64,000 nucleotides of DNA from a virus. How positions within the stretch are numbered: the first letter of the stretch is position 1; every line of letters starts with the position of its first letter. The stretch is from positions 1 through 64,000 of the IMG/VR virus record IMGVR_UViG_3300034019_000586; one strand, given 5' to 3'. The position numbers were made by a program, and so were the translations under genes. Shown in pieces: positions 26,249 through 63,572 of the stretch. The notes under the pieces are model-generated. The model searched no databases. It saw only the letters and a program-made list of their open reading frames with translations, and had not been told where the DNA came from.

Positions 26249-27061
26249 TTAATCAGTACAAAAACCTGCTTGACAACCTGATCCTGTGCCAAAGAAAAAA
26301 TCTTGCTGTAATCCAATTTTCTTGATGTTGTCGTATGACATTTCTTTTTTGAATGTGCGCTTCATTTTGCGTTCCATTTCTGCAAACCATCGCATCTTTT
26401 GTGGCTCGTCTTCCCAATTCTTTCTAAGTTGCTGATACGGTTTCCAAAAACAGCCTACGCAATTACTATCAGGAGGGAATATAAGCCCTATTGAATTAGC
26501 CCATTTCTTAACTTCAAAATGTGTCTTTTTTGATTCAATAAGCGGAAATCGCCCTATCCTCCAATTAAAGTCTTGCCATTTGTTGTTTCCGTTTTCGTGC
26601 TTTCCAACTTTTATCTTGATGTCTGTTTTGAATCGGTCTGCGCGTTCCTTTTCATCGTATCTAAACCCGACTTGCATACATATTTTTTCACCAATGTTTT
26701 TATGCCACCATTCCGCAATTGGAAACATTTTTAATTCAGTTGTACAAAATCGCTGCATCAAGTTTGGAAGTGCTTTTCTTTTTTTAATAAGGGTTTCAAA
26801 CGTATCGCCCGTCACCCAAATTATTTCTTTCCCAATCAACTGTTCCAAATCACGCATGACGTAAAGCGTTTTATCACTTTCGGCAGTTGCGATAAAGTCC
26901 ATCCCTATCTTATCGCTTGCGTACTTTACAATACTTTCGTCTTTAGGCTTGCAGTAATCCGCTTCAATTCTAACCAATGCAAAAATATTGTAGTCCACAG
27001 GGTGATGAGCAGCCATGTAGGAAGACGTTTTACCGCCAGATAATGAATTTACTGTAATCAT
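26249..27061 (-). CDS. ATP-pyrophosphatase (PAPS reductase-like) protein
   Basis: A 270-residue protein with the N-type ATP-PPi loop SGGKTSSYMA at residues 8-17. It has further Cys motifs, CVGCFW near 205 and GSGCQAGFCTD at the C-terminus. The family includes PAPS reductases and DndC/thiolation enzymes that activate a substrate with ATP. The Cys pairs may hold a metal cluster. Its start overlaps the end of the next upstream gene by 4 nt. Nucleotide or nucleic-acid sulfur modification is possible; true sulfate assimilation is less likely in a phage. Confidence 0.75.
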   Translation of the reverse strand: MITVNSLSGGKTSSYMAAHHPVDYNIFALVRIEADYCKPKDESIVKYASDKIGMDFIATAESDKTLYVMRDLEQLIGKEIIWVTGDTFETLIKKRKALPNLMQRFCTTELKMFPIAEWWHKNIGEKICMQVGFRYDEKERADRFKTDIKIKVGKHENGNNKWQDFNWRIGRFPLIESKKTHFEVKKWANSIGLIFPPDSNCVGCFWKPYQQLRKNWEDEPQKMRWFAEMERKMKRTFKKEMSYDNIKKIGLQQDFFFGTGSGCQAGFCTD

Positions 27062-27459
27062 AGCGCAAATGATTTTAGGTAGCTAACACCACTTTCTAAA
27101 TCTTCAAAAACAATATCGGATACCTGAGTTATGAATGACAAGTATGCGTCTTTAATCGTTTCGTGGTTGGGTTCTAAAACAGTTATGACTGTTTTTCCCA
27201 ATCCTTTTGCATAACCCGCCTCGCAACACAAACCAATGCAACTTGTATTTGTTCTTTCGACGTACACAAAAACAATATCGCACTGCTTAATGAAATGCAA
27301 ATCCCATTTTCCGTATTCATTTACATTCATCACAATTCGTTCCCCGTTCTTAAATTCTTTATCTTTTGGGTTTATCCATTGGAAATTATCAGAACTCTTT
27401 TTCACTTCACTTGCCCAGTCGCTTTTAAAGCCGCCCGCTAAGTACACTTTTTGTTTCAT
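27058..27459 (-). CDS. Nucleoside 2-deoxyribosyltransferase-like protein
   Basis: A 133-residue protein with the small Rossmann-like fold of the family: MKQKVYLAGGF at the start, CDIVFVYVERTNTSCIGLCC in the middle, and then EAGYAKGLGK, where the Glu is the usual catalytic nucleophile. Such enzymes swap or hydrolyse bases on deoxynucleosides. Its stop overlaps the start of the ATP-pyrophosphatase, so the two are probably co-translated. A role in nucleotide salvage or base modification is inferred. Confidence 0.72.
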   Translation of the reverse strand: MKQKVYLAGGFKSDWASEVKKSSDNFQWINPKDKEFKNGERIVMNVNEYGKWDLHFIKQCDIVFVYVERTNTSCIGLCCEAGYAKGLGKTVITVLEPNHETIKDAYLSFITQVSDIVFEDLESGVSYLKSFAL

Positions 27460-37217: not shown

Positions 37218-37652
37218 CTACAACGGTTGAGTGATTTGATTACGAAGTATATCATAAAATACATTTCGTGACAAAGCACCCAAACAAATAAAATCGGGCT
37301 TCATTTCATTTAAAGCTAATATTTCAGGAATAGCAATAAATAAATCTTCATCAGTAAGTTTTTTAATTAAATCACAATCCATTTCTATAACAGTACCTTT
37401 TGTTTTGAAATATCTTTGTTGTAAGTATTTTGTATATGCTTGTGTAGCATCTGCAATTACACCATACGTTTCGTTTGGGTTTTGCCTTGTAGCCCAACAA
37501 ACGAAAGCACCTTTAAAATCATTTATCATTAAATGAAATTTATCATTCAAATAATTTGCCGAAATGTCAGCGTTTGTCAATTTGTGAACTGACTTGTCTT
37601 TAATTTGTTTTGGAGTTAAGTCAATAACTTCTTTTTGATTTTCTGTACTCAT
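37218..37652 (-). CDS. Cassette 5: hypothetical protein
   Basis: A 144-residue soluble protein (for example HLMINDFKGAFVCWATRQ), no recognised family. Unlike four of its companions its ATG lies 44 nt outside the upstream attC-C, the classical arrangement. The stop is about 20 nt before the attC-B core. Confidence 0.7.
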   Translation of the reverse strand: MSTENQKEVIDLTPKQIKDKSVHKLTNADISANYLNDKFHLMINDFKGAFVCWATRQNPNETYGVIADATQAYTKYLQQRYFKTKGTVIEMDCDLIKKLTDEDLFIAIPEILALNEMKPDFICLGALSRNVFYDILRNQITQPL

Positions 37653-52999: not shown

Positions 53000-53860
53000 A
53001 TGAAGCTAACGAAAGATGAGTTTGAAAAGGTAAGATTTATTCGTGAGTGCGTGGTGGAAATACCATCGCTACAAACCAACATTGTAAAAGTCGGTGACAC
53101 CGAAATTGAGATTGTCACCGACTATACTTTGTCGGAAGAAACTAAATCTATTGAGCGTAAAAAATGGTTTGAACTTGGGGCTAAACTTGCGTCCATGCCG
53201 CGAGAAACAGAAGAAAAGAAAGCACTTCGCAAGGAATACATTGAGATAAAAAACAGACTGAGGCAGAAAGGTGAGGAAAGAGAAACAGAACAGGTTTCCA
53301 AAAACAGAAATGCCACAAGAAAAGGAAAGTTAATTAAGTTGCCCCTAAGCACAAACATTGTTGACGGCAACATATTTAGCTGTGAACTTGACTGCAAAGA
53401 AGGTGACGAGGTTTACTTTGATGCCTTTTGGACGCAGCAGGAAATCGCAAAAAAGTTTGACGCCAAAACGGGCGACGACTACATAATTCATGTTGAGGAC
53501 AAAATTTATTTGAGAGTTCCTGCGGTGTCCTTGTTTTGTAGTGTGGATGCAGAAGGTAATTACAAGGGACTAAACGGGTTTTTGGTTGCCGAGCCACTTG
53601 ACGCAGACAACACCATGATTACGGAAGGTGGCATTATAATTAATTCAGAGCCTAAAAACTTACCGAGAGCGAGGGTTGTTGGCGTATCTTCTTACTTGCC
53701 TAAATTCAGAAACGCTTCGGTATTTATGAATACAAAGGTTAAGAAAGGAGATATTGTGTACACCGAGCCGAGATACCAAACGTGGCTTGACAAAACAAGC
53801 GGAGGTAAAAACTCACTTGTGAGAATACCAAACTTTAAGATTTTGAAAATTGAAGATTGA
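53000..53860 (+). CDS. Second, double-domain GroES-like protein
   Basis: A 286-residue protein. After a charged helical N-terminus of about 105 residues, the segment from 111 to 285 looks like two Cpn10-like barrels in tandem. One carries KLIKLPLSTNIVDGNIF...EGDEVYFDAF. The other carries LNGFLVAEPL...GGIIINSEP...VVGVSSYLP...VKKGDIVYTEP. This could form a larger cap for GroEL or a structural ring. The assignment is by pattern and moderate. Confidence 0.58.
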   Translation: MKLTKDEFEKVRFIRECVVEIPSLQTNIVKVGDTEIEIVTDYTLSEETKSIERKKWFELGAKLASMPRETEEKKALRKEYIEIKNRLRQKGEERETEQVSKNRNATRKGKLIKLPLSTNIVDGNIFSCELDCKEGDEVYFDAFWTQQEIAKKFDAKTGDDYIIHVEDKIYLRVPAVSLFCSVDAEGNYKGLNGFLVAEPLDADNTMITEGGIIINSEPKNLPRARVVGVSSYLPKFRNASVFMNTKVKKGDIVYTEPRYQTWLDKTSGGKNSLVRIPNFKILKIED

Positions 53861-54497
53861 GGGCATCATAACGTCTTACAACAGGCACGACCTACTTTAT
53901 CAAACGCTAAAGTCGATTAAGGAATTTATGTTTGACGAAATTTCGACACTGTACGTTGTCGAAGATAGCGAACACACCAATTCTTTTTTATCCGTTTGTT
54001 CGGAATTTTCAGAATTTGTTCAGCCGTTGCCGCTTGATATGCACACAGGTCACGTTTACGCCATAGACTATGCAATGCAAAAAGTCACTACGAAATACTA
54101 TTTTCATGGCGAAGATGATTTTCAATGTATAAAGTCAGGTTTTACAAGTTTTACAGGGCTTCTTGAATACGGAAACGGTGTTTTAGAGGTAAACGGCAGG
54201 GGGAGGGATAGAAAGGCGGTTAATCATCATCCAATTAATTCAGAAGGTATTTTGTCAACGGACTATCACGGGTGGACGGGCAAGATGTGGTCGCCATGTA
54301 TATGCAGATTAAGTGAGTACAAGAAACTTGGGCGTTATTCAGATCATGTTACTTTTGATGCGACAAGGCCGTTTATGGCAGAAAAGGAAATAGGAAAAAA
54401 AATGATGAAGGAATTTAACGGGTGCTACGTCACGGAATCACCTTATTTTGAACATATAGGCGAAAATAGATCAACTTCTAAATTTATTAAGCAATGA
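53850..54497 (+). CDS. Family 2-like glycosyltransferase
   Basis: A 215-residue GT-A-type enzyme starting at TTG 53850, inside the end of the previous gene. KIEGIITSYNRHDLLYQTLK is the classical GT2 nucleotide-binding start, and YFHGEDDFQC holds the metal-binding acidic motif. It would transfer a sugar from an NDP donor. First of six coupled decoration genes. Confidence 0.8.
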   Translation: MKIEGIITSYNRHDLLYQTLKSIKEFMFDEISTLYVVEDSEHTNSFLSVCSEFSEFVQPLPLDMHTGHVYAIDYAMQKVTTKYYFHGEDDFQCIKSGFTSFTGLLEYGNGVLEVNGRGRDRKAVNHHPINSEGILSTDYHGWTGKMWSPCICRLSEYKKLGRYSDHVTFDATRPFMAEKEIGKKMMKEFNGCYVTESPYFEHIGENRSTSKFIKQ

Positions 54498-55105
54498 AGA
54501 TACCACACATTATGCCGTTTCAGTTAGAACCGTTTAACGGGGATAAATTTATTGAAGCGGAATTTATATTGCTAAAAAACAAGTTCGGGCTTAATACAGC
54601 TTTTGAAACAGGTACTTGTTTTGGTAGCAGCACATTGTTCCTTTCGGATAACTTTGATAGGGTTGTGACAATAGAAAACAATATTGAATATCTAAATATT
54701 GCTCACCAAAGACTAAAGGAAGGAGAGCGCACAAACGTCAAAACCGTTTTTGGAGATAGCGGGGAAGTCACATACGACGCAATAGTTGATAACCTTGTTG
54801 ATGACAAAACAATGTTTTTTCTTGATGCGCATTTTAATTCATATTGCCCGCTTCGGGACGAGTTAAAAGCAATTGCACTTGCGGGAATTAAACCCGTGAT
54901 AGCAATACACGATTTCAAAGTTCCTGAGCAAAGCGGGCTTGGATTTGATTCATATAACGGGCAAGACTTTGAATTGGCTTGGATATTTTCAGACCTAAAC
55001 GAAATTTATGGTCAGGGCGAATGGGAGTATCATTACAACACAGAAGAAAATTCAGCGGGTGCAAAACGAGGAATAATTTATATCTATGGTAAGGTTACTG
55101 ATTAA
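54494..55105 (+). CDS. SAM-dependent methyltransferase
   Basis: A 203-residue class I methyltransferase: FETGTCFGSSTLFLSDNFDR forms the SAM-binding strand-loop-helix, VVTIENN follows as the acidic second strand, and MFFLDAHFNSYCP is the active-site region. The fold suggests small-molecule or sugar O-methylation. ATG overlaps the previous stop by 4 nt. Confidence 0.78.
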   Translation: MKIPHIMPFQLEPFNGDKFIEAEFILLKNKFGLNTAFETGTCFGSSTLFLSDNFDRVVTIENNIEYLNIAHQRLKEGERTNVKTVFGDSGEVTYDAIVDNLVDDKTMFFLDAHFNSYCPLRDELKAIALAGIKPVIAIHDFKVPEQSGLGFDSYNGQDFELAWIFSDLNEIYGQGEWEYHYNTEENSAGAKRGIIYIYGKVTD

Positions 55106-55730
55106 TTACTACGTTGACCCCGATTTTGAAAGGAACGAGGAGTTGTTGATTTGCCTTGCCAATAACTGTCAAAATTCAGAGATAGACGAGGTTTGTTGTT
55201 TTACGGAAGTAGAGCCGCCCGACTTTGGTTCGGTTGAAAAAGTGAACTTTGGTGGTCGGCCAACTTTTGAGGACTTCTTTCACTACATAAACAGGGTTGC
55301 AGAACCTAATGATATTTCGATTATCTGCAATTCGGATATATTCTTTAACTCAAAAGACGTGAAGATGATTAAGGCCAATCTTCAAACACACGAATGTTAT
55401 ACCTTATCAAGATATGATTTAGATGAAAAGGGAAACGCGGTATTGTTTGACCGAGCAGATAGTCAAGACGCTTGGGTATTTCGCGGAAGGGTAAAAACCC
55501 CGAAGTCATGTAGGTATCACATGGGAAAACCCGGCATTGATAACGCAATAGCAGAAAGACTTCAAACCGCAGGGTACACGGTAAAAAACCCCTCAAAGTC
55601 AATCAAGTCATATCATGTTCACGTAACTAATTTAAGGCGGTATAACAGGGTAGAAACGATTGAAAAGCCGTATCTATTAATTACACCGCATCTTATCGGA
55701 GAAACACCACAATATAGAACAATACAATGA
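55086..55730 (+). CDS. Glycosyltransferase-like protein
   Basis: A 214-residue protein with a GT-A-like layout: an NDP-binding start (LLINYYVDPDFERNEELLIC), an acidic ISIICNSDIFFN motif of the DXD type, and later DAWVFRG and MGKPGIDNAIAERL, common in glycan-building enzymes. Overlaps the methyltransferase by 20 nt. Confidence 0.7.
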   Translation: MVRLLINYYVDPDFERNEELLICLANNCQNSEIDEVCCFTEVEPPDFGSVEKVNFGGRPTFEDFFHYINRVAEPNDISIICNSDIFFNSKDVKMIKANLQTHECYTLSRYDLDEKGNAVLFDRADSQDAWVFRGRVKTPKSCRYHMGKPGIDNAIAERLQTAGYTVKNPSKSIKSYHVHVTNLRRYNRVETIEKPYLLITPHLIGETPQYRTIQ

Positions 55731-56386
55731 GTTGGATTAAGGAAATTAAAGACATAAGAAAAAAGGGCGGTTCGGGTCAGTTTGAGGAATCCGAAATCAT
55801 TGCTTTTATTTTTGAAAACATAGGAACTATCAATAAATTCTTAGTTGATTTAGGTTGTGGGGCTTACGGTGACGCAACCATGAGCAACACCCGCGACATG
55901 ATGAATAGTGGTTGGAAGGGATTTGGCGTTGACATGAATCTGGTGGCAGATGAGTGGGTGGTTCAAAGTTTTATCCAACCACAAACTATTGTCACCTTAT
56001 TAAACGGAAAGGAAACACCAAAAGAATTTGACTTTCTGAATTTAGATATTGATTCATCAGACTTTTGGGTTCTTAAAAACATTCTTGAAGCAGGATTTAA
56101 GCCGCGACTAATTTGTGCGGAGTACAACGGAACATTAGACCCCAATAAATCACTTGTGCTTGAATACGAAGAAGTATATACGTGGGACGGAACTAACAAG
56201 TACGGTTTTTCTCTTGGTGCGGGAAAAAAGCTATTAAAAAAACACGGCTACACCATAATTTACTGTCAGCACGACACCAATCTATTTGCTATACCGACAG
56301 AACTTGTAAATGAACAAGTCGAACTTAATGCGAAACAAAATTTATATCATCCAATCAATCCAAACGCGGTTTGGGTAAATTACTAA
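55727..56386 (+). CDS. FkbM-like methyltransferase
   Basis: A 219-residue protein with KFLVDLGCGAYGDATMSNT (SAM motif I), GWKGFGVDMN (second acidic strand) and FDFLNLDIDSSDFWVL, as in FkbM-type enzymes that methylate sugar hydroxyls. ATG overlaps the previous stop by 4 nt. Confidence 0.75.
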   Translation: MSWIKEIKDIRKKGGSGQFEESEIIAFIFENIGTINKFLVDLGCGAYGDATMSNTRDMMNSGWKGFGVDMNLVADEWVVQSFIQPQTIVTLLNGKETPKEFDFLNLDIDSSDFWVLKNILEAGFKPRLICAEYNGTLDPNKSLVLEYEEVYTWDGTNKYGFSLGAGKKLLKKHGYTIIYCQHDTNLFAIPTELVNEQVELNAKQNLYHPINPNAVWVNY

Positions 56387-56390
56387 TACT

Positions 56391-57317
56391 ATGCGCCTAC
56401 TTAATATTGGAATGTTTAACCGTCACGAGGGTCAGGAATCCATGCGGATGGCTCTTGAAAGCATAAGCACTTACTACGAGGAATACAGTTTTGAGAACAA
56501 CCTTGCTTCGGCAGTTGACGCATATCGAAAGGCTGCGGGAAAGTTTGATGTAATATTTCTCCATGTTCAAAGAGATGGCGTAATACCGCTTGACAGAACA
56601 AAGTTCTTACATTCACAAGGTGTTAAAATTTACAACTTTACAGGCGACGTAAGACAACCTATACCGAGGTGGTATCACGAACTTGCGCCATACGTCACTA
56701 CACTATTTTCTAACCTAACAGACGCGGAGGTATTTAATTCATTGGGGTTTAAGGCACATTATTTTCAAGTGGGTTACAACGAGCATTACTACAATAAAGA
56801 CGTTGCAGCCAATCCAAAATCACCCGAAATTGTGTTTATGGGGAATAACTACAACAACACATTTCCTCTTGGTGGATTAAGAAAAGAAATGGTTGAGAAC
56901 CTAAGAAAAAGATACGGAAACAGGTTTGAAGTATTTGGTTGTGGATGGGGCAAATCACAAAATCTTAATCAACTTCAACTTGAAGAAGCCCGTATTTATC
57001 GTGGTTGCAAGATTGCAATTAATTTATCGCACTTCAACCTAAAGCGGTATTCGAGCGATAGACTTTTTAGAATACTGGCTTGCGGAACTTTCTGCCTTAC
57101 TCATAGGTACAAACAGATTGAAACCGAATTTACAGATGGGGAAGACCTTGTTTGCTTTGATAGTCTTAATCACCTTTATGAATTGATTGATAAATACTTG
57201 GAGTTGCCCGAAGAAAGACACAGAATTGCAATGAACGGAAACAGAAAGTGTGAATCCGAATTTACTTGGGGCGCAAGGATGCAGCAACTTGTTTCCATAA
57301 TTAATTCAAATGGATAG
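56391..57317 (+). CDS. GT-B glycosyltransferase (GT4/CgeB-like)
   Basis: A 308-residue protein of two Rossmann halves. The C-terminal half has PEIVFMGNNY, FGCGWG, and SSDRLFRILACGTFCLTHRY followed by an acidic run ETEFTDGEDLVCF. This is the donor-binding pattern of group 1 and CgeB-like transferases. It lies between a methyltransferase and the GT7-like gene. Confidence 0.78.
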   Translation: MRLLNIGMFNRHEGQESMRMALESISTYYEEYSFENNLASAVDAYRKAAGKFDVIFLHVQRDGVIPLDRTKFLHSQGVKIYNFTGDVRQPIPRWYHELAPYVTTLFSNLTDAEVFNSLGFKAHYFQVGYNEHYYNKDVAANPKSPEIVFMGNNYNNTFPLGGLRKEMVENLRKRYGNRFEVFGCGWGKSQNLNQLQLEEARIYRGCKIAINLSHFNLKRYSSDRLFRILACGTFCLTHRYKQIETEFTDGEDLVCFDSLNHLYELIDKYLELPEERHRIAMNGNRKCESEFTWGARMQQLVSIINSNG

Positions 57318-57954
57318 TTGTTTTATAGTACCATATCGAAAACGTGAAGAACACTTAAAAAAGTTTGTTTCGCATTATTCCAAAATAATGCCTGACACTC
57401 CTATTTATGTAATTGAACAAGCAGACGACAACCCATTTAACAGGGCTAAATTATTCAACGTTGGGTTTGATCTTTTACGGCAGAACTATGGTAACTTCAT
57501 ATTCCATGATGTTGACCAATTGATTGATGTCAAACGTTGTGACCCAATCACAGCCTATGCAAGTACCGATAACGTAGTTCATTTGGGTACAAAATTAGAA
57601 CAGTTTGGATATAAATTACCTGACAAAGAGTTTTTTGGAGGCATCACCATATTTTCAAGGTCAGCAATGGAAAAAATTAATGGATGGAGTAATTTGATAT
57701 GGGGATGGGGCAGTGAGGCCGAAATGGTTCGTGACGACTTAATTAAGAAGGGAGTGCCGATTGAATCAAGGGAGGCTTACTACAAATCACTACCGCACGA
57801 AAGGAGTTACATATCACATGAATTAATCAAGGCGGGGTGCGCCATAAGACAAGCGGGAAAGAACGATGATGTTGACGGACTTTCACACCTTCAATACAAA
57901 GTGAATGGTGCGAAACTTAATGTTAAGCACACCGTAATAAAAGTAGAACTGTAA
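57310..57954 (+). CDS. GT7 beta-1,4-galactosyltransferase-like enzyme
   Basis: A 214-residue protein matching animal-type beta-1,4-galactosyltransferase motifs: CFIVPYRKREEHL, FNRAKLFNVGFD, the DVD metal motif in FHDVDQLI (residues 65-72), FGGITIFSRSAMEKINGWSN and WGWGSEAE. It should transfer galactose or GalNAc to a terminal sugar. Overlaps the previous gene by 8 nt and closes the island. Confidence 0.85.
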   Translation: MDSCFIVPYRKREEHLKKFVSHYSKIMPDTPIYVIEQADDNPFNRAKLFNVGFDLLRQNYGNFIFHDVDQLIDVKRCDPITAYASTDNVVHLGTKLEQFGYKLPDKEFFGGITIFSRSAMEKINGWSNLIWGWGSEAEMVRDDLIKKGVPIESREAYYKSLPHERSYISHELIKAGCAIRQAGKNDDVDGLSHLQYKVNGAKLNVKHTVIKVEL

Positions 57955-57965
57955 AATAAAGACAG

Positions 57966-58613
57966 ATGGAGTACGAAAAAATGCAATATTTTATAGAAAA
58001 CGTTCCCGACAACGAAAGTGTTATTGAGCGTTTTCCCGACCTACTTGCACAGGCGCACGTCTTTATGAGTGAATCAGACCTTCCATCAGATGTTTCGGCT
58101 GACAAGGTTATGAGGTACTTAATTTATATGTACGACCCCAACACACCACTAAGACGCGAAATACCCGACATAAAGAAAAGAAAGCAGTTTACCCTGACTA
58201 AATTAAACATAGTCAAGTTGGGCGACACCGAAGTTCCCGAAGGTTATTCCGAAATGTGCGGGATGAATAAGGATTGGATAGTGACACGATTTATAGCCTT
58301 TACTAAATTTTTTAAGTCAATGGCGTATGAGAAACTTCTTGTGGCAGAGGAACGATACGCGCAGATGAACAACCTTATTTTGACTTCTGTAATTGACAAG
58401 GCTACGGATGACAAAAACCTACAAACAGGTAGAAAGGCTTGGTATGACGACATTAAGGAAGCCTTGCAAGAAATAATGGATGGCGAAAGTTCCAAAAGAC
58501 TTGAAGAAAGCATTGTGTTTACGGTGAAGATGGAAAGCATGGGGTTAAGACCCGAAGAATACAGCAGACAATACAGGGAAACAGGAAATTTATTTAGCGA
58601 CATTGTGCCATGA
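57966..58613 (+). CDS. Protein next to terminase, possible small subunit
   Basis: A 215-residue helical acidic protein whose stop overlaps the terminase ATG by 4 nt. No helix-turn-helix is obvious, but the position directly before TerL is that of terminase small subunits. Assignment is by place only. Confidence 0.6.
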   Translation: MEYEKMQYFIENVPDNESVIERFPDLLAQAHVFMSESDLPSDVSADKVMRYLIYMYDPNTPLRREIPDIKKRKQFTLTKLNIVKLGDTEVPEGYSEMCGMNKDWIVTRFIAFTKFFKSMAYEKLLVAEERYAQMNNLILTSVIDKATDDKNLQTGRKAWYDDIKEALQEIMDGESSKRLEESIVFTVKMESMGLRPEEYSRQYRETGNLFSDIVP

Positions 58614-61090
58614 GTAGTGTAGTTGATTTATATGAGAAGGAAGATGAATACGTTATCCTCAATGATAGGGATGAGGACTTGTTTCCAATACCCATAAAAC
58701 TTCCATCACTAACGGAGTGGTATAGCAAGTATCTTGGTAGAGAAGTGTCTTGGGGCGAGGCCATAACCTATGTGGACGGATACGGCCTACACCCAAACGA
58801 TCAGGTTTTTAAGCACCAGCAAGTTCCCGAAAGAATCAAGTTAATTTATGAAACCACTTTCAATAAATTAAAGATAAAAAAGAAGTACAAGGAAATTACA
58901 GAAGTTTCGCAAGAAGACTTGTACGATGAAATAGAATCAAACCCGATATACTACAAAGAAGAGATTAAGTGGATGAAAACCCAAATTAAGCGGGTTATCT
59001 ACACGGGATATTGGTGTTTTATCAAGGGTAAACCGACATACCTTAATCCACCATTTTACTTCTTTCTCAACTTTTGGAAACTAAAAAACAAGAACAGAAA
59101 AGATAGTTTGCCCGACTACCGAAACTATCAAAGAGAAATGTTTACGGGGCTTTACTACGCCCATACCACAGATGATTTATTCTATAAGCACAGAGTGGTT
59201 TGGAGAGGCGACGACTTGGCACAACAGGAAACGCTTTTTAACGAATTTCAGTCAATGATTGACTTTGAGCGTGAATTAAAGCAGAAAGGAATTGCTTGTT
59301 TTCATCAGGCAGAAGTCACGGGAGGTATATGGCGTAAAAATCCAAACGGAAGAACTTGTAATGGAATTAATTTAATATCAGGTCGTCGTATTGCTAAAAC
59401 AGATAGCGCGTGTTGTTTTGGCTATTGGGCTACAATTAGAATACCCGAACAATTATTTGTGATTCAGGGATTGAACAAGGAGCAAGCCGTTGACAAGGTT
59501 TTCATTCAGAAAATTCAAGTTCCTGTAAGTAAGTTGCCATTCTTTTTTAGACCGCATATCAGAGGTAGAGAAGACGCAAAAGCGGGTATGACGTTTTTAT
59601 ACGATGGAGAAACACTTGCATCATATCGTGCAGGTGTTATTCCTGAACCGCACGGTGGCAGGATATTACCGCTTTCAAGTAACGAAAGGGCGGCAGACGG
59701 AGAGGAGGCCAATATTGTTTACATTGATGAACCCGGTAAGCGACTTGATAAAAAAGCACAAGAAAGGGATATACCTTCTTTGTGGTACGAGGTATTGAAA
59801 CCCGCAACCGAAATTGGTTCGGAGATCGTTGGAACTTGCATCATGCCTACGACGGTTGGCGAAATGGAATCAGGTGGTGGAGATCAGTTTTTGCGAATTG
59901 TAAACGATTCGCACTTTGACGACAGAACCGATAACGGCACTACGGTGTCAGGGCTTTTGAATATATTTTTAAGTGGTTACTACGCCATACCCGGATTTAT
60001 AGACAAGTGGGGATTTACGGTAATGGAAACACCTAAATTTCCCGTAATATCCAACACAGGTAAGTCAATAACAATGGGTGCAAGAGAGTGGCACGAAAAC
60101 CAAATTAGGCACTTTGAAAAGAACAAACAATGGGAGAAGCTGAACACGCACAACCGAAACTTCCCACCATCATTTAAGGCAGCGTTTCAATTAAACATGA
60201 AGGGTATGGGCATGACTGAAATCACCCTTCAAAAGATGAAAAACAGGGTAAGTGATTTAAGGTTTAGCAAGTCAGCACCGCCATATTCACGAATAGACTT
60301 TACGTTTATACCTAATTCTGAAAACGTAATGACCGAAATACATGATTTAGGTCGTTGGGTGTATTCATACTTGCCGCCAAAGCAAATGTGGAATCAGAAA
60401 ACAGTCGTAACCGAAGACGAAGGATACACAAGGCTTGGAACAAAAGGGCAGATTTACGCACCACACACTTCGGTAGCTAACAAATTCGTTATATGTTTTG
60501 ACCCCGTTAAATTTGATAAAATGAACCGTAGGGGAAGCGGCAGTTCAACTCCTGCTGCTGCGGTTTACTACAAAAGAGATATGACCGTTGATCCCGACAC
60601 AAAACCGAGAGATGAATGGGTTAGCGAGGACTATGTTGCTTTGATAGCACATAAAACAGACTTTAAGGAGGAAATTTATGAGGAGGTATTAAAGGCTGCA
60701 ATACTTTATGGCGCATATATTTATCCCGAAGCCAATGACGCCAATGACTTTATGCAGTGGATTCGCAAAAAGGGATATGATGGGTATTTACTAAGAGATA
60801 TTGATGAGAAAGGAAAACTTGCAGCCGTTCCCGGTGTTTGGGCAGACGCAAATACCATTGGTGACATGGTAACGAAAATGGTTGACTATTTCGCTCATAA
60901 TGTGTCTTACATGAAGATACCGCACATAATTGAGGATTGGTTAAAGATGAAGGGTGTTGATGATTTGACAAACCGAGATATTGCGGCTGCAACGGGATGG
61001 TGTCAGAGAGCGTCAGCACAAAGAACGGGTGAAGTTTATAAAGATTGGTATGGTGAAGTAGAGATAGATGATGAACCCGATATGTTTTAA
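58610..61090 (+). CDS. terL: Terminase large subunit
   Basis: An 826-residue DNA-packaging motor. The ATPase has the phage Walker A variant SGRRIAKT near residue 257 and the Walker B strand NIVYIDEPG near 370. The C-terminal RNase H-like nuclease shows its acids in ICFDPVKFD (about 627), YPEANDAND (about 705) and DANTIGDM (about 745). The length is close to crAss-like terminases. It cuts and pumps DNA into the prohead through the portal encoded next. Confidence 0.9.
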   Translation: MSSVVDLYEKEDEYVILNDRDEDLFPIPIKLPSLTEWYSKYLGREVSWGEAITYVDGYGLHPNDQVFKHQQVPERIKLIYETTFNKLKIKKKYKEITEVSQEDLYDEIESNPIYYKEEIKWMKTQIKRVIYTGYWCFIKGKPTYLNPPFYFFLNFWKLKNKNRKDSLPDYRNYQREMFTGLYYAHTTDDLFYKHRVVWRGDDLAQQETLFNEFQSMIDFERELKQKGIACFHQAEVTGGIWRKNPNGRTCNGINLISGRRIAKTDSACCFGYWATIRIPEQLFVIQGLNKEQAVDKVFIQKIQVPVSKLPFFFRPHIRGREDAKAGMTFLYDGETLASYRAGVIPEPHGGRILPLSSNERAADGEEANIVYIDEPGKRLDKKAQERDIPSLWYEVLKPATEIGSEIVGTCIMPTTVGEMESGGGDQFLRIVNDSHFDDRTDNGTTVSGLLNIFLSGYYAIPGFIDKWGFTVMETPKFPVISNTGKSITMGAREWHENQIRHFEKNKQWEKLNTHNRNFPPSFKAAFQLNMKGMGMTEITLQKMKNRVSDLRFSKSAPPYSRIDFTFIPNSENVMTEIHDLGRWVYSYLPPKQMWNQKTVVTEDEGYTRLGTKGQIYAPHTSVANKFVICFDPVKFDKMNRRGSGSSTPAAAVYYKRDMTVDPDTKPRDEWVSEDYVALIAHKTDFKEEIYEEVLKAAILYGAYIYPEANDANDFMQWIRKKGYDGYLLRDIDEKGKLAAVPGVWADANTIGDMVTKMVDYFAHNVSYMKIPHIIEDWLKMKGVDDLTNRDIAAATGWCQRASAQRTGEVYKDWYGEVEIDDEPDMF

Positions 61091-61163: not shown

Positions 61164-63572
61164 ATGTATCTAATCCCATTAAGTTCAGGATTTGCGTTTC
61201 CCGACGATAGTGTTTCGGAAAAGGAAAAGGCAGATGTTAAATTTGGCTCAAAAGTCGCTCGTGCTTTGTGGGCTAAATTTTGTCTTGGAGGCACTTATGG
61301 TTGGGGCTATAACGATTTACAGAACATAAAACTTATTCGTGATTACGGTGACGGTGTTCAGGATGAGAGAATTTATAGGGATTGGCACACCAATGGATCA
61401 CCGATAGGCGGTGGAAGGATTAATCAAGGAAACGGCAATCAGGGTGGAAGACACGCGAGGCTTGCAGCAACACAGATGCGCGGGGCAATGGTTAATATTT
61501 CTTACAAGCCATTTAGCCCAATACCTAAATTTAGTTCAACGGTAATTTCAATGCTTTCTGGCAACGATTACTTTGTTGAATTTACTTCGGTAAATAAAAA
61601 CGCCATTGATGAAAAGACGAGGAAAAAACTAAAACTGTTTTATGCCTCAACAATGGTAAACCCACTTGTTAAAGAACTTGGGCTTCCTGAAATACCGATT
61701 CCGTTTCAGCCAAAGGATGAGAGAGAACTTGAAATGCTCGAAAAACAGGGCGCGTTTAAGTCAGATATAGAGAGATCGTTGGAGCAGGTAGCGGAAACAG
61801 GATTTAAGTTGTCTAATTGGCCGTATAAAATTCGTAGAAAGTGCAATAAGGACGCTATTGACTTTAATTTAAGATGCGCTAAACTTTACACGGAAGCAAG
61901 CGGAGCGGTTAAATGGAGATACGTTGATGTGACAAGAATGATTGTTCTTTGGAACGACAATGACGATGAACCCGTTGGTATTGGTGACGTAAGGCTTGTA
62001 GATATTCAGTCTATTTACAAAGATTTAGTTGATTCAGGATATACCGAAGACGAAATTAAGGGCATTGCTAAAACGTATCAGGGTCAACAAATTGCGCAAT
62101 GGGCAAATGATTCAGTAATTTTTGAAAGGAAAGACCCACTAACAAACCGTTGGATGTGGCTTGACTTCAAAGTTCCTGTAATGGATTTTGATTACCTATC
62201 AACTGACTATCATCAGTTTGTAAAAGGAAAAGACAAAAAAGGAAAGACTTTTTACGAAAGAAACGAAAAGGTTGTTTCCGATAAGGAAAAAAGCAAGGAC
62301 AGAGAATACGATGATTACCAATGTAATTTTTGGTATGAGGGAAGTTATATTGTCGGAACGGACAAAACATTTAATTGGAGAAAGAAGCCAAATCAGGTTC
62401 AAGGTTCTAAATTAAACCCATGTAGTTCATACGTTTTTGACAGAGCATCGGATAACGGACAAGCACTTACACAAAGGGCTATTCCTATTGAAGATGAATT
62501 AATGTTTTCTGTTATTAAGAAACGTGCTGCGGTTGCCGCTTCTGCGCCAAAGGGCTACATTGTTGACGTAGGTGATAGCGGCAGAATAATGATTGGAGGT
62601 TCAGAGTATAGCGTTTTTGACTTAATTCATATGCACCGTCAAAACGGTATCATGTTGAAGAAAACAAGCGTAAACGCAGCAACGGGAAAGCAGACATCGA
62701 CACCAATTATAGAACTTGAAAACGGTCTTGGGAAGCAAGGGGATGAATGGCTAAGAGAAATTGCGGCTAATGTTTTCAACCTTGCAAGCACGTTTGGAAT
62801 TACCGACGCCACAGCCGCCCAAATGGAAACAAGTGGTGAAAAAGCCGTAGGGGTCTGGGAGGGTGAAATCCAATCAACTAACCACGCAATTTACCCGCTA
62901 AAGGTGTCTGAAATGGCTTTTAAGGAAAAACTTGCAGCGAGATATGCTTTGCAGGTACGGGTGAATATAAAGTACGATGATAGGTGTCGTGAATTTTATG
63001 AGAACCAACTTGGTAAGCACGTCATTGGTGTACTTGATTCAATAGATGAGATTTGCCTTGAAGACATAGGTGTAGTGGCAAAAGCACTTCCAAATGAGAA
63101 GAAGAAAGATCAAATCTTGATGAGGGCGGTTGAAATGAGTAAAATCGCAACCCGTGATGGAAGCACTTATTTAACACCCGCAGACGTTGAAAGGGTTAGT
63201 GAATTTCTTGAAAACGATGATATTGAGGGCGCACGTCAGTATATGTACGACCGTGAAAGGTTTAACAGGGAGAACGCGGAAAGGGTGGCGCAGGAAAGTA
63301 TGCAAATGACTATTAAAGGTCAACAAGAATCTGCAATGATCGCGGAACAAGCCAAACAGCAAACTATTCAAGTTGAACTTCAATCACAACTTGCAAAAAT
63401 CGAAGCTGAAAAGCAAAAAGAAATTGAGGTAATGAATTTGAAGTACGAACTTGAAAACAGAAACAAGGTAACAGAAATCAGAGAAAAAGGCAGCGAGGAC
63501 ATGAATCAGTTGCTTGTGGAGATCGAAGGTGAAAAACAAACAGGAACAAATATTAGAAACGATAAAACATAA
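61164..63572 (+). CDS. Portal protein
   Basis: An 802-residue protein directly after terminase, in the portal position. It has a mixed N-terminal part, a long clip/stem-like helical region, and a C-terminal coiled coil rich in Gln and Glu (about 680-795: MTIKGQQESAMIAEQAKQQT and on). This resembles crAss-like portals in size and layout. Twelve copies would form the DNA gate. It has its own promoter. Confidence 0.8.
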   Translation: MYLIPLSSGFAFPDDSVSEKEKADVKFGSKVARALWAKFCLGGTYGWGYNDLQNIKLIRDYGDGVQDERIYRDWHTNGSPIGGGRINQGNGNQGGRHARLAATQMRGAMVNISYKPFSPIPKFSSTVISMLSGNDYFVEFTSVNKNAIDEKTRKKLKLFYASTMVNPLVKELGLPEIPIPFQPKDERELEMLEKQGAFKSDIERSLEQVAETGFKLSNWPYKIRRKCNKDAIDFNLRCAKLYTEASGAVKWRYVDVTRMIVLWNDNDDEPVGIGDVRLVDIQSIYKDLVDSGYTEDEIKGIAKTYQGQQIAQWANDSVIFERKDPLTNRWMWLDFKVPVMDFDYLSTDYHQFVKGKDKKGKTFYERNEKVVSDKEKSKDREYDDYQCNFWYEGSYIVGTDKTFNWRKKPNQVQGSKLNPCSSYVFDRASDNGQALTQRAIPIEDELMFSVIKKRAAVAASAPKGYIVDVGDSGRIMIGGSEYSVFDLIHMHRQNGIMLKKTSVNAATGKQTSTPIIELENGLGKQGDEWLREIAANVFNLASTFGITDATAAQMETSGEKAVGVWEGEIQSTNHAIYPLKVSEMAFKEKLAARYALQVRVNIKYDDRCREFYENQLGKHVIGVLDSIDEICLEDIGVVAKALPNEKKKDQILMRAVEMSKIATRDGSTYLTPADVERVSEFLENDDIEGARQYMYDRERFNRENAERVAQESMQMTIKGQQESAMIAEQAKQQTIQVELQSQLAKIEAEKQKEIEVMNLKYELENRNKVTEIREKGSEDMNQLLVEIEGEKQTGTNIRNDKT

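What the first reader, a model, noticed from the sequence alone, without database searches (positions are those of the whole stretch)
53850..57954. Six-gene glycosylation/methylation island before terminase
Four glycosyltransferase-like genes (GT2, GT-A-like, GT-B, GT7) and two sugar-type methyltransferases are packed with stop/start overlaps, starting from a TTG inside the previous gene. No lipopolysaccharide precursor genes accompany them. Placed among morphogenesis genes, the set may build an O-methylated glycan on a virion protein, or modify the host surface against superinfection.
Basis: partly seen in the sequence, partly recalled or inferred. Interest (0 to 1): 0.8.

Follow-up and report, generated by a model that had tools for sequence, protein, structure and literature searches.

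The report
Portable phage sugar-chain gene cassette
A virus of Bacteroidota-type bacteria carries six genes, slotted in just before its DNA-packaging genes, for building and methylating a short sugar chain; the same gene set recurs in the particle-building regions of many unrelated phages, so it is probably a swappable kit for sugar-coating virus particles, though the target has not been shown.

Summary
In detail: 53850-57954 carries six tightly packed genes, GT2, O-methyltransferase (MT1), GT-A (GTx), FkbM-like methyltransferase (MT2), GT-B and GT7, with no sugar-precursor or membrane genes. The phage is a ~69 kb podovirus-like relative of Flavobacterium Elemovirus and Maribacter Panino. In all 15 close relatives (TerL ~50% identical) that span the site, the upstream co-chaperonin gene and the downstream pre-terminase gene overlap (ATGA): an empty site. 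The island is therefore an insertion. It is not unique. The core MT1+GTx+GTB+MT2 recurs in 18 viral loci (at least 9 distinct contexts), GTx+GTB in 23 more; GT2+GT7 are neighbours in 9, mostly as one fused ORF. These cassettes often sit beside terminases, portals or head proteases of unrelated families, and a GTx cluster lies inside a phage-tail-derived eCIS locus. I read it as two portable modules building an O-methylated oligosaccharide on a virion protein (confidence 0.5). Host-surface modification is the main rival; a DNA glycan is less likely (no TET or thymidylate-synthase homologue). This phage's GT7 lacks the proposed catalytic Asp kept by all 43 scorable relatives, so it may be inactive or altered. 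The substrate is not shown.

The parts
53000..53860 (+). Upstream gene: GroES-like co-chaperonin, left border of the insertion
   Evidence: phrog_3188 co-chaperonin GroES 5.5e-7 at residues 189-257; homologues abut the pre-terminase gene in 15 relatives
53850..54497 (+). GT2: GT-A glycosyltransferase, TTG start
   Evidence: PF00535 2.5e-5; homologue 31% in the L093 cassette; neighbour of or fused to GT7 in 9 other phage loci
54494..55105 (+). MT1: class I SAM O-methyltransferase
   Evidence: Profile A5 vs PDB: best 3ntv 6.5e-8, many catechol O-methyltransferases; 129 viral relatives
55086..55730 (+). GTx: GT-A-fold glycosyltransferase without a Pfam family
   Evidence: AF2 pLDDT 96.1; Foldseek K4CP 4.8e-6, TarS, WrtF, GalNAc-T; invariant N82, D84, R109, Q127, D128, W130, D152, N153, H177, H179 in 31 sequences
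55727..56386 (+). MT2: FkbM-like sugar O-methyltransferase
   Evidence: AF2 pLDDT 86.6; Foldseek MtmC 3.5e-5, MycE, SpnK; homologue L146 matches PF05050 at 5e-4
56391..57317 (+). GTB: GT-B glycosyltransferase
   Evidence: PF13524 1.2e-26; paired with GTx in 23 further loci; fused to GTx in L100 and L277
57310..57954 (+). GT7: beta-1,4-galactosyltransferase-like, with the catalytic Asp replaced by Ala
   Evidence: PF13733 4e-16, PF02709 2.2e-15; PDB B4GALT1 2.2e-26; WGWGSEAEM vs WGWG[AG]ED in 43/43 scorable relatives
57966..58613 (+). Gene before TerL (terminase-small-subunit position), right border of the insertion
   Evidence: 43-45% homologues immediately after the GroES-like gene in relatives; no domain match
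58610..61090 (+). Terminase large subunit
   Evidence: phrog_6681 1.5e-33
61164..63572 (+). Portal protein
   Evidence: phrog_6547 4.8e-47

Best explanation
The island is an inserted accessory cassette made of two portable modules, a core (MT1, GTx, GTB, MT2) bracketed by a GT2/GT7 pair. It sits between the co-chaperonin gene and the pre-terminase gene, so it is probably transcribed with the morphogenesis genes. Its soluble enzymes take nucleotide sugars and SAM from the host, assemble a short oligosaccharide by sequential transfer in the cytoplasm, and O-methylate one or two sugars. The acceptor is most likely a virion protein (capsid, head decoration or fibre). Likely benefits are altered adsorption, protection from glycan-binding or proteolytic attack, or changed surface properties. 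Shown by computation: enzyme folds and families, gene order, empty site in relatives, recurrence of both modules, fusions. Inferred: co-transcription, activity, product chemistry, virion as acceptor, benefit.
For: (1) Empty site: all 15 relatives spanning the junction have an ATGA overlap of the two flanking genes, and records G001-G010 have no GT2-family, GTB-family or GTx hit. (2) MT1+GTx+GTB+MT2 co-occur in 18 viral loci, GTx+GTB in 23 more, with GTx-GTB fused in L100 and L277. (3) GT2 and GT7, the island's two ends, are neighbours in 9 other loci, mostly as one ~440-aa ORF. (4) Recurrence beside packaging and head genes of unrelated families: TerL phrog_9 + major head protein (L129), phrog_2/3717 (L146, L152), phrog_15 (L144), TerL of the window's family + portal (L098, L118), portal phrog_7376 (L093), head protease + portal phrog_11226 (L103), TerL phrog_3717/6672 (L256); GT7 loci L198 and L218 likewise. 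(5) A GTx cluster lies between sheath/tube/Pvc16 genes and an eCIS_core gene in a Bacteroidetes genome (L176), a virion-derived particle without DNA. (6) No membrane segment, and no GT-chain export or precursor genes seen. (7) Precedent: mycobacteriophage Che8 capsids carry glycans (PMC11256854, citing Freeman 2023), and chlorovirus PBCV-1 capsid glycans include dimethylated rhamnose made by virus enzymes in the cytoplasm (PMC7019647).
Against: No acceptor is identified. Several cassettes are not near head genes (L161, L166, L277 and L324 lie among small ORFs or replication genes), and structural context was checked in selected loci, not counted systematically. Cellular GTx homologues L177, L178, L180 and L182 sit in polysaccharide-type gene clusters, which fits surface-glycan chemistry. 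The window GT7 lacks the Asp kept in all 43 scorable relatives. Late timing is inferred from position only.
Confidence: 0.5

Rival explanations
1. Host-surface modification: the enzymes alter capsule or lipopolysaccharide of the infected cell late in infection, blocking superinfection or re-adsorption of progeny to debris.
For: Cellular GTx homologues lie in GT-rich polysaccharide clusters (L177, L178, L180, L182). Benler et al. (PMC8008677) interpret a glycosyltransferase between portal and MCP genes of 'Gratiaviridae' this way. Surface glycans are the commonest substrates of these GT families (general knowledge).
Against: No membrane GT, flippase, lipid-carrier enzyme or precursor gene. The cassette recurs beside head genes of unrelated phages and inside an eCIS locus. 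A late lytic change would have little time to remodel an existing surface.
Confidence: 0.25
2. DNA hypermodification: the glycosyltransferases build a glycan on modified bases of the phage genome before packaging.
For: Phage GTs that build glycans on DNA are known (Pyle 2024, cited in PMC12619734). One GTx-GTB phage (G016, locus L103) carries a TET/JBP dioxygenase next to its terminase. The window phage has a nucleoside 2-deoxyribosyltransferase-like gene.
Against: No thymidylate-synthase/hydroxymethylase-like gene in 19 records and no TET/JBP in 18 of them, including the window phage. The cassette is far from the replication module in the window. The GTx cluster in an eCIS locus has no DNA to modify.
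Confidence: 0.1
3. The genes are real but the cassette is partly decayed or makes a soluble or storage product in this phage, for example because GT7 is inactive.
For: GT7 motif WGWGSEAEM in place of WGWG[AG]ED (43/43 scorable relatives have D).
Against: All six ORFs are intact and overlapping or nearly so. GT7 keeps DVD, W, E136 and the metal-binding His. The other five align over their length with their families' conserved residues. Composition equals the rest of the genome (38.9 vs 39.1% GC), as expected for a resident, maintained insert.
Confidence: 0.15

Closest known systems
Mycobacteriophage virion glycosylation (Che8, Rita; Freeman et al. 2023, via PMC11256854)
   Same: Phage-encoded glycosyltransferases; glycan on capsid or tail proteins there, proposed here
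   Different: Different hosts; in the F1 phage Maravista the GTs are near the genome's 3' end; here a six-gene unit with two methyltransferases just before the packaging genes; no glycan shown here
Chlorovirus PBCV-1 capsid glycan pathway (PMC7019647)
   Same: Several virus-encoded soluble cytoplasmic GTs; the glycan carries methylated sugars
   Different: Eukaryotic NCLDV; no claim of homology; acceptor known there, not here
Sugar gene clusters of cyanophages S-SKS1 and S-SM2 (HQ633071, NC_015279)
   Same: Each shares one island family (GTx 34%, MT2 31%)
   Different: Those clusters include epimerases, heptose and pyrophosphorylase genes; the island has none
'Gratiaviridae' GT-AAA-HipA set (PMC8008677)
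   Same: Glycosyltransferase inside the head-gene block of gut phages
   Different: One GT with a kinase and ATPase, no methyltransferases; read there as capsule modification

Membership tests
Phage virion-glycosylation systems (Che8 type) | Phage-encoded glycosyltransferases | tested here: met
   Four GTs
Phage virion-glycosylation systems (Che8 type) | Covalent glycan on capsid or tail protein | not testable with these tools
   Needs virions and MS
Phage virion-glycosylation systems (Che8 type) | Glycan lost when the GT genes are removed | not testable with these tools
   No cultured phage
Gtr-type seroconversion (GtrA/GtrB/GtrC) | Membrane flippase, bactoprenol GT and integral-membrane GT | tested here: not met
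   No island protein has a TM-like segment, max 19-residue KD 1.34; no such Pfam match
Phage DNA glucosylation/hypermodification | Enzyme making the hydroxylated base (thymidylate-synthase-like hydroxymethylase or TET/JBP) | tested here: not met
   PF00303 and PF12851 absent from G000; TET present in one GTx-GTB phage, G016. G000 lacks about 2.4 kb of the circle
GT7 beta-1,4-galactosyltransferase family | Pfam GT7 N and C domains above cut-off | tested here: met
   59.3 vs 27 and 56.5 vs 23 bits
GT7 beta-1,4-galactosyltransferase family | WGWG-x-E-D motif with the proposed catalytic Asp | tested here: not met
   WGWGSEAEM; 43/43 scorable viral relatives keep D. A homologue by sequence, activity uncertain
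FkbM methyltransferases (PF05050) | Score above Pfam cut-off | tested here: not met
   12.7 vs 22.7 bits in the window; 20.7 vs 22.7 in L146; the fold resembles sugar O-MTases
Glycosyltransferase family 2 (PF00535) | Score above Pfam cut-off | tested here: met
   24.7 vs 23.3 bits, marginal
GT-A fold glycosyltransferases (GTx) | GT-A fold with a DxD-like acidic motif | tested here: met
   Foldseek E 4.8e-6 to K4CP; invariant N82-x-D84 in 31 sequences, an NxD rather than DxD motif

The most novel reading that the evidence does not exclude
A family of exchangeable virion-glycan cassettes (core MT1-GTx-GTB-MT2 plus a GT2-GT7 module) circulates among unrelated tailed phages and tail-derived injection particles, each copy inserting into the morphogenesis block and coating a structural protein with an O-methylated oligosaccharide. 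If so, phages have a modular, swappable particle glycocalyx.
Probability: 0.35. Interest if true: 0.78.

Novelty: new variant of a known kind. Interest (0 to 1): 0.58.

Why it matters
Phage particle glycosylation has been demonstrated in few phages. A recurrent, defined gene set, with clean empty-site relatives as natural controls and with fused versions, gives a small system to test what phages glycosylate and why. It also names two virus-rich enzyme families without good annotation (GTx and MT1) that can be searched for in other viromes.

Tried and rejected
Single-sequence scans of viral contigs with GT7 and GT2 found nothing; a degenerate GT7 motif scan then found 59 relatives, so the early 'absent' results were a sensitivity limit. 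Rejected: recent import by composition (island GC 38.9% vs 39.1%). Rejected: island unique to this phage. Rejected as an explanation for the window: Gtr-type seroconversion (no membrane proteins). GT7 as a host-derived Bacteroidota gene was not supported: 0 of 395 sampled genomes of the phylum above the Pfam cut-off. PDB sequence profiles for GTx and MT2 gave no match, so folds were used. The close relatives L001-L003 do not span the site, so the island's age within the species could not be tested. The Freeman 2023 paper itself is not held; it is cited through PMC11256854 and PMC12619734.
Full report
OBSERVATION. The first starts at a TTG inside the GroES-like gene; its GT2 domain match begins at residue 6, before any in-frame ATG, so the TTG is plausible. 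Chance cannot make six such ORFs (longest stop-free run in 200 shuffles 143 codons), and each has homologues.

ENZYMES. GT2 is a marginal PF00535 member, GTB a clear PF13524 GT-B, and GT7 a clear PF13733/PF02709 protein matching vertebrate B4GALT1 at 2.2e-26. GTx has no Pfam or PDB sequence match, but a 31-sequence alignment gave an AF2 model at pLDDT 96.1 whose best solved neighbours are K4 chondroitin polymerase, TarS, WrtF fucosyltransferase and polypeptide GalNAc-transferases. The MT1 profile matches COMT-like O-methyltransferases. The MT2 model resembles MtmC, MycE and SpnK, the last two being sugar O-methyltransferases by general knowledge. No island protein has a membrane-spanning stretch.

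PHAGE. The window is 64.0 of 66.7 kb of an IMG/VR record. Contig L003 overlaps both ends, giving a circular map of about 69 kb. TerL's nearest named relatives are Elemovirus, Maribacter phage Panino and Cellulophaga phages, at only about 24% identity, so a Bacteroidota host is likely but not shown. Virion genes recognised: TerL, portal, a capsid-like protein (phrog_13704), a large structural protein (phrog_14478) and a tail fibre.

EMPTY SITE. A TerL alignment scan brought about 20 relatives at 47-51% identity. In all 15 that span the junction, the GroES-like and pre-terminase genes overlap as ATGA. In Panino and Elemovirus a GroES gene abuts TerL directly. No GT2-family, GTB-family or GTx match occurs in the ten relatives searched whole. 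So the 4.1 kb is best read as an insertion in the window's lineage. Its composition equals the genome's, so it is not a fresh import from a host of different GC.

RECURRENCE. Searching with GTx gave 83 relatives, with MT1 129, and with a GT7 motif 59, all 59 of which encode a GT7 homologue. Per-locus co-occurrence (several loci are near-identical or overlapping contigs): 18 with MT1, GTx, GTB and MT2; 23 with GTx and GTB; 9 with GT2 and GT7. By eye the 18 four-gene loci fall into at least nine distinct contexts (the L093 group, L118, L144, L146, L152, L255, L256, L277, L326). GTx-GTB is one ORF in L100 and L277. GT2-GT7 is one ORF of about 440 aa in L198, L200, L227 and L239. In the window GT2 is the first gene and GT7 the last, so the island looks like the core module placed inside, or joined with, a GT2/GT7 module. 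Only the L093 group also has GT2 with the core; GT7 with the full core was seen only in the window.

CONTEXT. Neighbours of the cassettes include terminases, portals and head proteases from unrelated families. In L129 the cassette lies between the TerL block and the major head protein. In L105 it lies just upstream of two co-chaperonin-like genes, a pre-terminase homologue and TerL. In a Bacteroidetes genome a GTx cluster lies within an eCIS locus (sheath, T4 gp19 tube, Pvc16, eCIS_core). Counter-examples exist (L161, L166, L277, L324). Only nine GTx loci were found in 84,980 bacterial and archaeal species genomes, at least one of them (L181) the same contig size as an IMG/VR record; scan patterns differed, so the ratio to viral loci is not a measured enrichment.

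INTERPRETATION. A soluble set of four GTs and two sugar-type methyltransferases, without precursor, carrier or export genes, repeatedly attached to particle-assembly genes, is best explained as making a short methylated glycan on a particle protein. Host-surface change is the main rival and has been argued for a comparable position in Gratiaviridae (PMC8008677). DNA glycosylation is possible in principle, and one GTx-GTB phage has a TET enzyme, but the window phage has neither TET nor a thymidylate-synthase homologue.

CAVEAT ON GT7. The window's motif is WGWGSEAEM. Every viral relative with that column aligned (43 of 43) has E-D. From general knowledge the Asp is the proposed catalytic base of beta-4-galactosyltransferase. 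The last step may thus be absent or altered in this phage.

NOVELTY. Glycosylated phage capsids and methylated viral capsid glycans are known (PMC11256854, PMC12619734, PMC7019647). I did not find a report of this recurrent cassette in the held library, which is not exhaustive. I call it a new variant of a known kind.

Noticed in passing
L176 (Bacteroidetes MAG JACZWC010000020.1): A cluster of GTx, two GT2 and two nucleotide-diphospho-sugar transferase genes (L176:4575-9276) sits between eCIS sheath/tube/Pvc16 genes and an eCIS_core gene, suggesting glycosylated tail-like particles.
   Followed up: partly
window 57310-57954: GT7 has Ala in place of the Asp conserved in 43/43 scorable viral relatives, and Phe where most have Tyr at the donor-selectivity position.
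   Followed up: partly
G016:C1:2941-3366 (phage of locus L103): TET/JBP dioxygenase beside the terminase in a phage that carries the GTx-GTB pair about 15 kb away.
   Followed up: no
L162:5293-8035: Four GTx domains in tandem, three of them in one 678-aa ORF.
   Followed up: no
window ends and L003: L003 overlaps both ends of the record, closing the map at about 69.15 kb.
   Followed up: yes
window 37218-37652: Weak, below-cut-off match to Tad5, a Thoeris inhibitor family (PF25190, 1.4e-4): possible counter-defence gene.
   Followed up: no
window 58610-61090 vs L001: TerL is 826 aa in the window and 820 aa in the 99% identical L001, a small in-frame indel.
   Followed up: no
L093:2046-2750 (-): A GT25 gene (PF01755, 6.7e-23) lies among head genes of the phage with the closest cassette.
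   Followed up: no
window 27058-27459: Nucleoside 2-deoxyribosyltransferase-like gene next to replication genes (PF15891, 2.3e-10).
   Followed up: no
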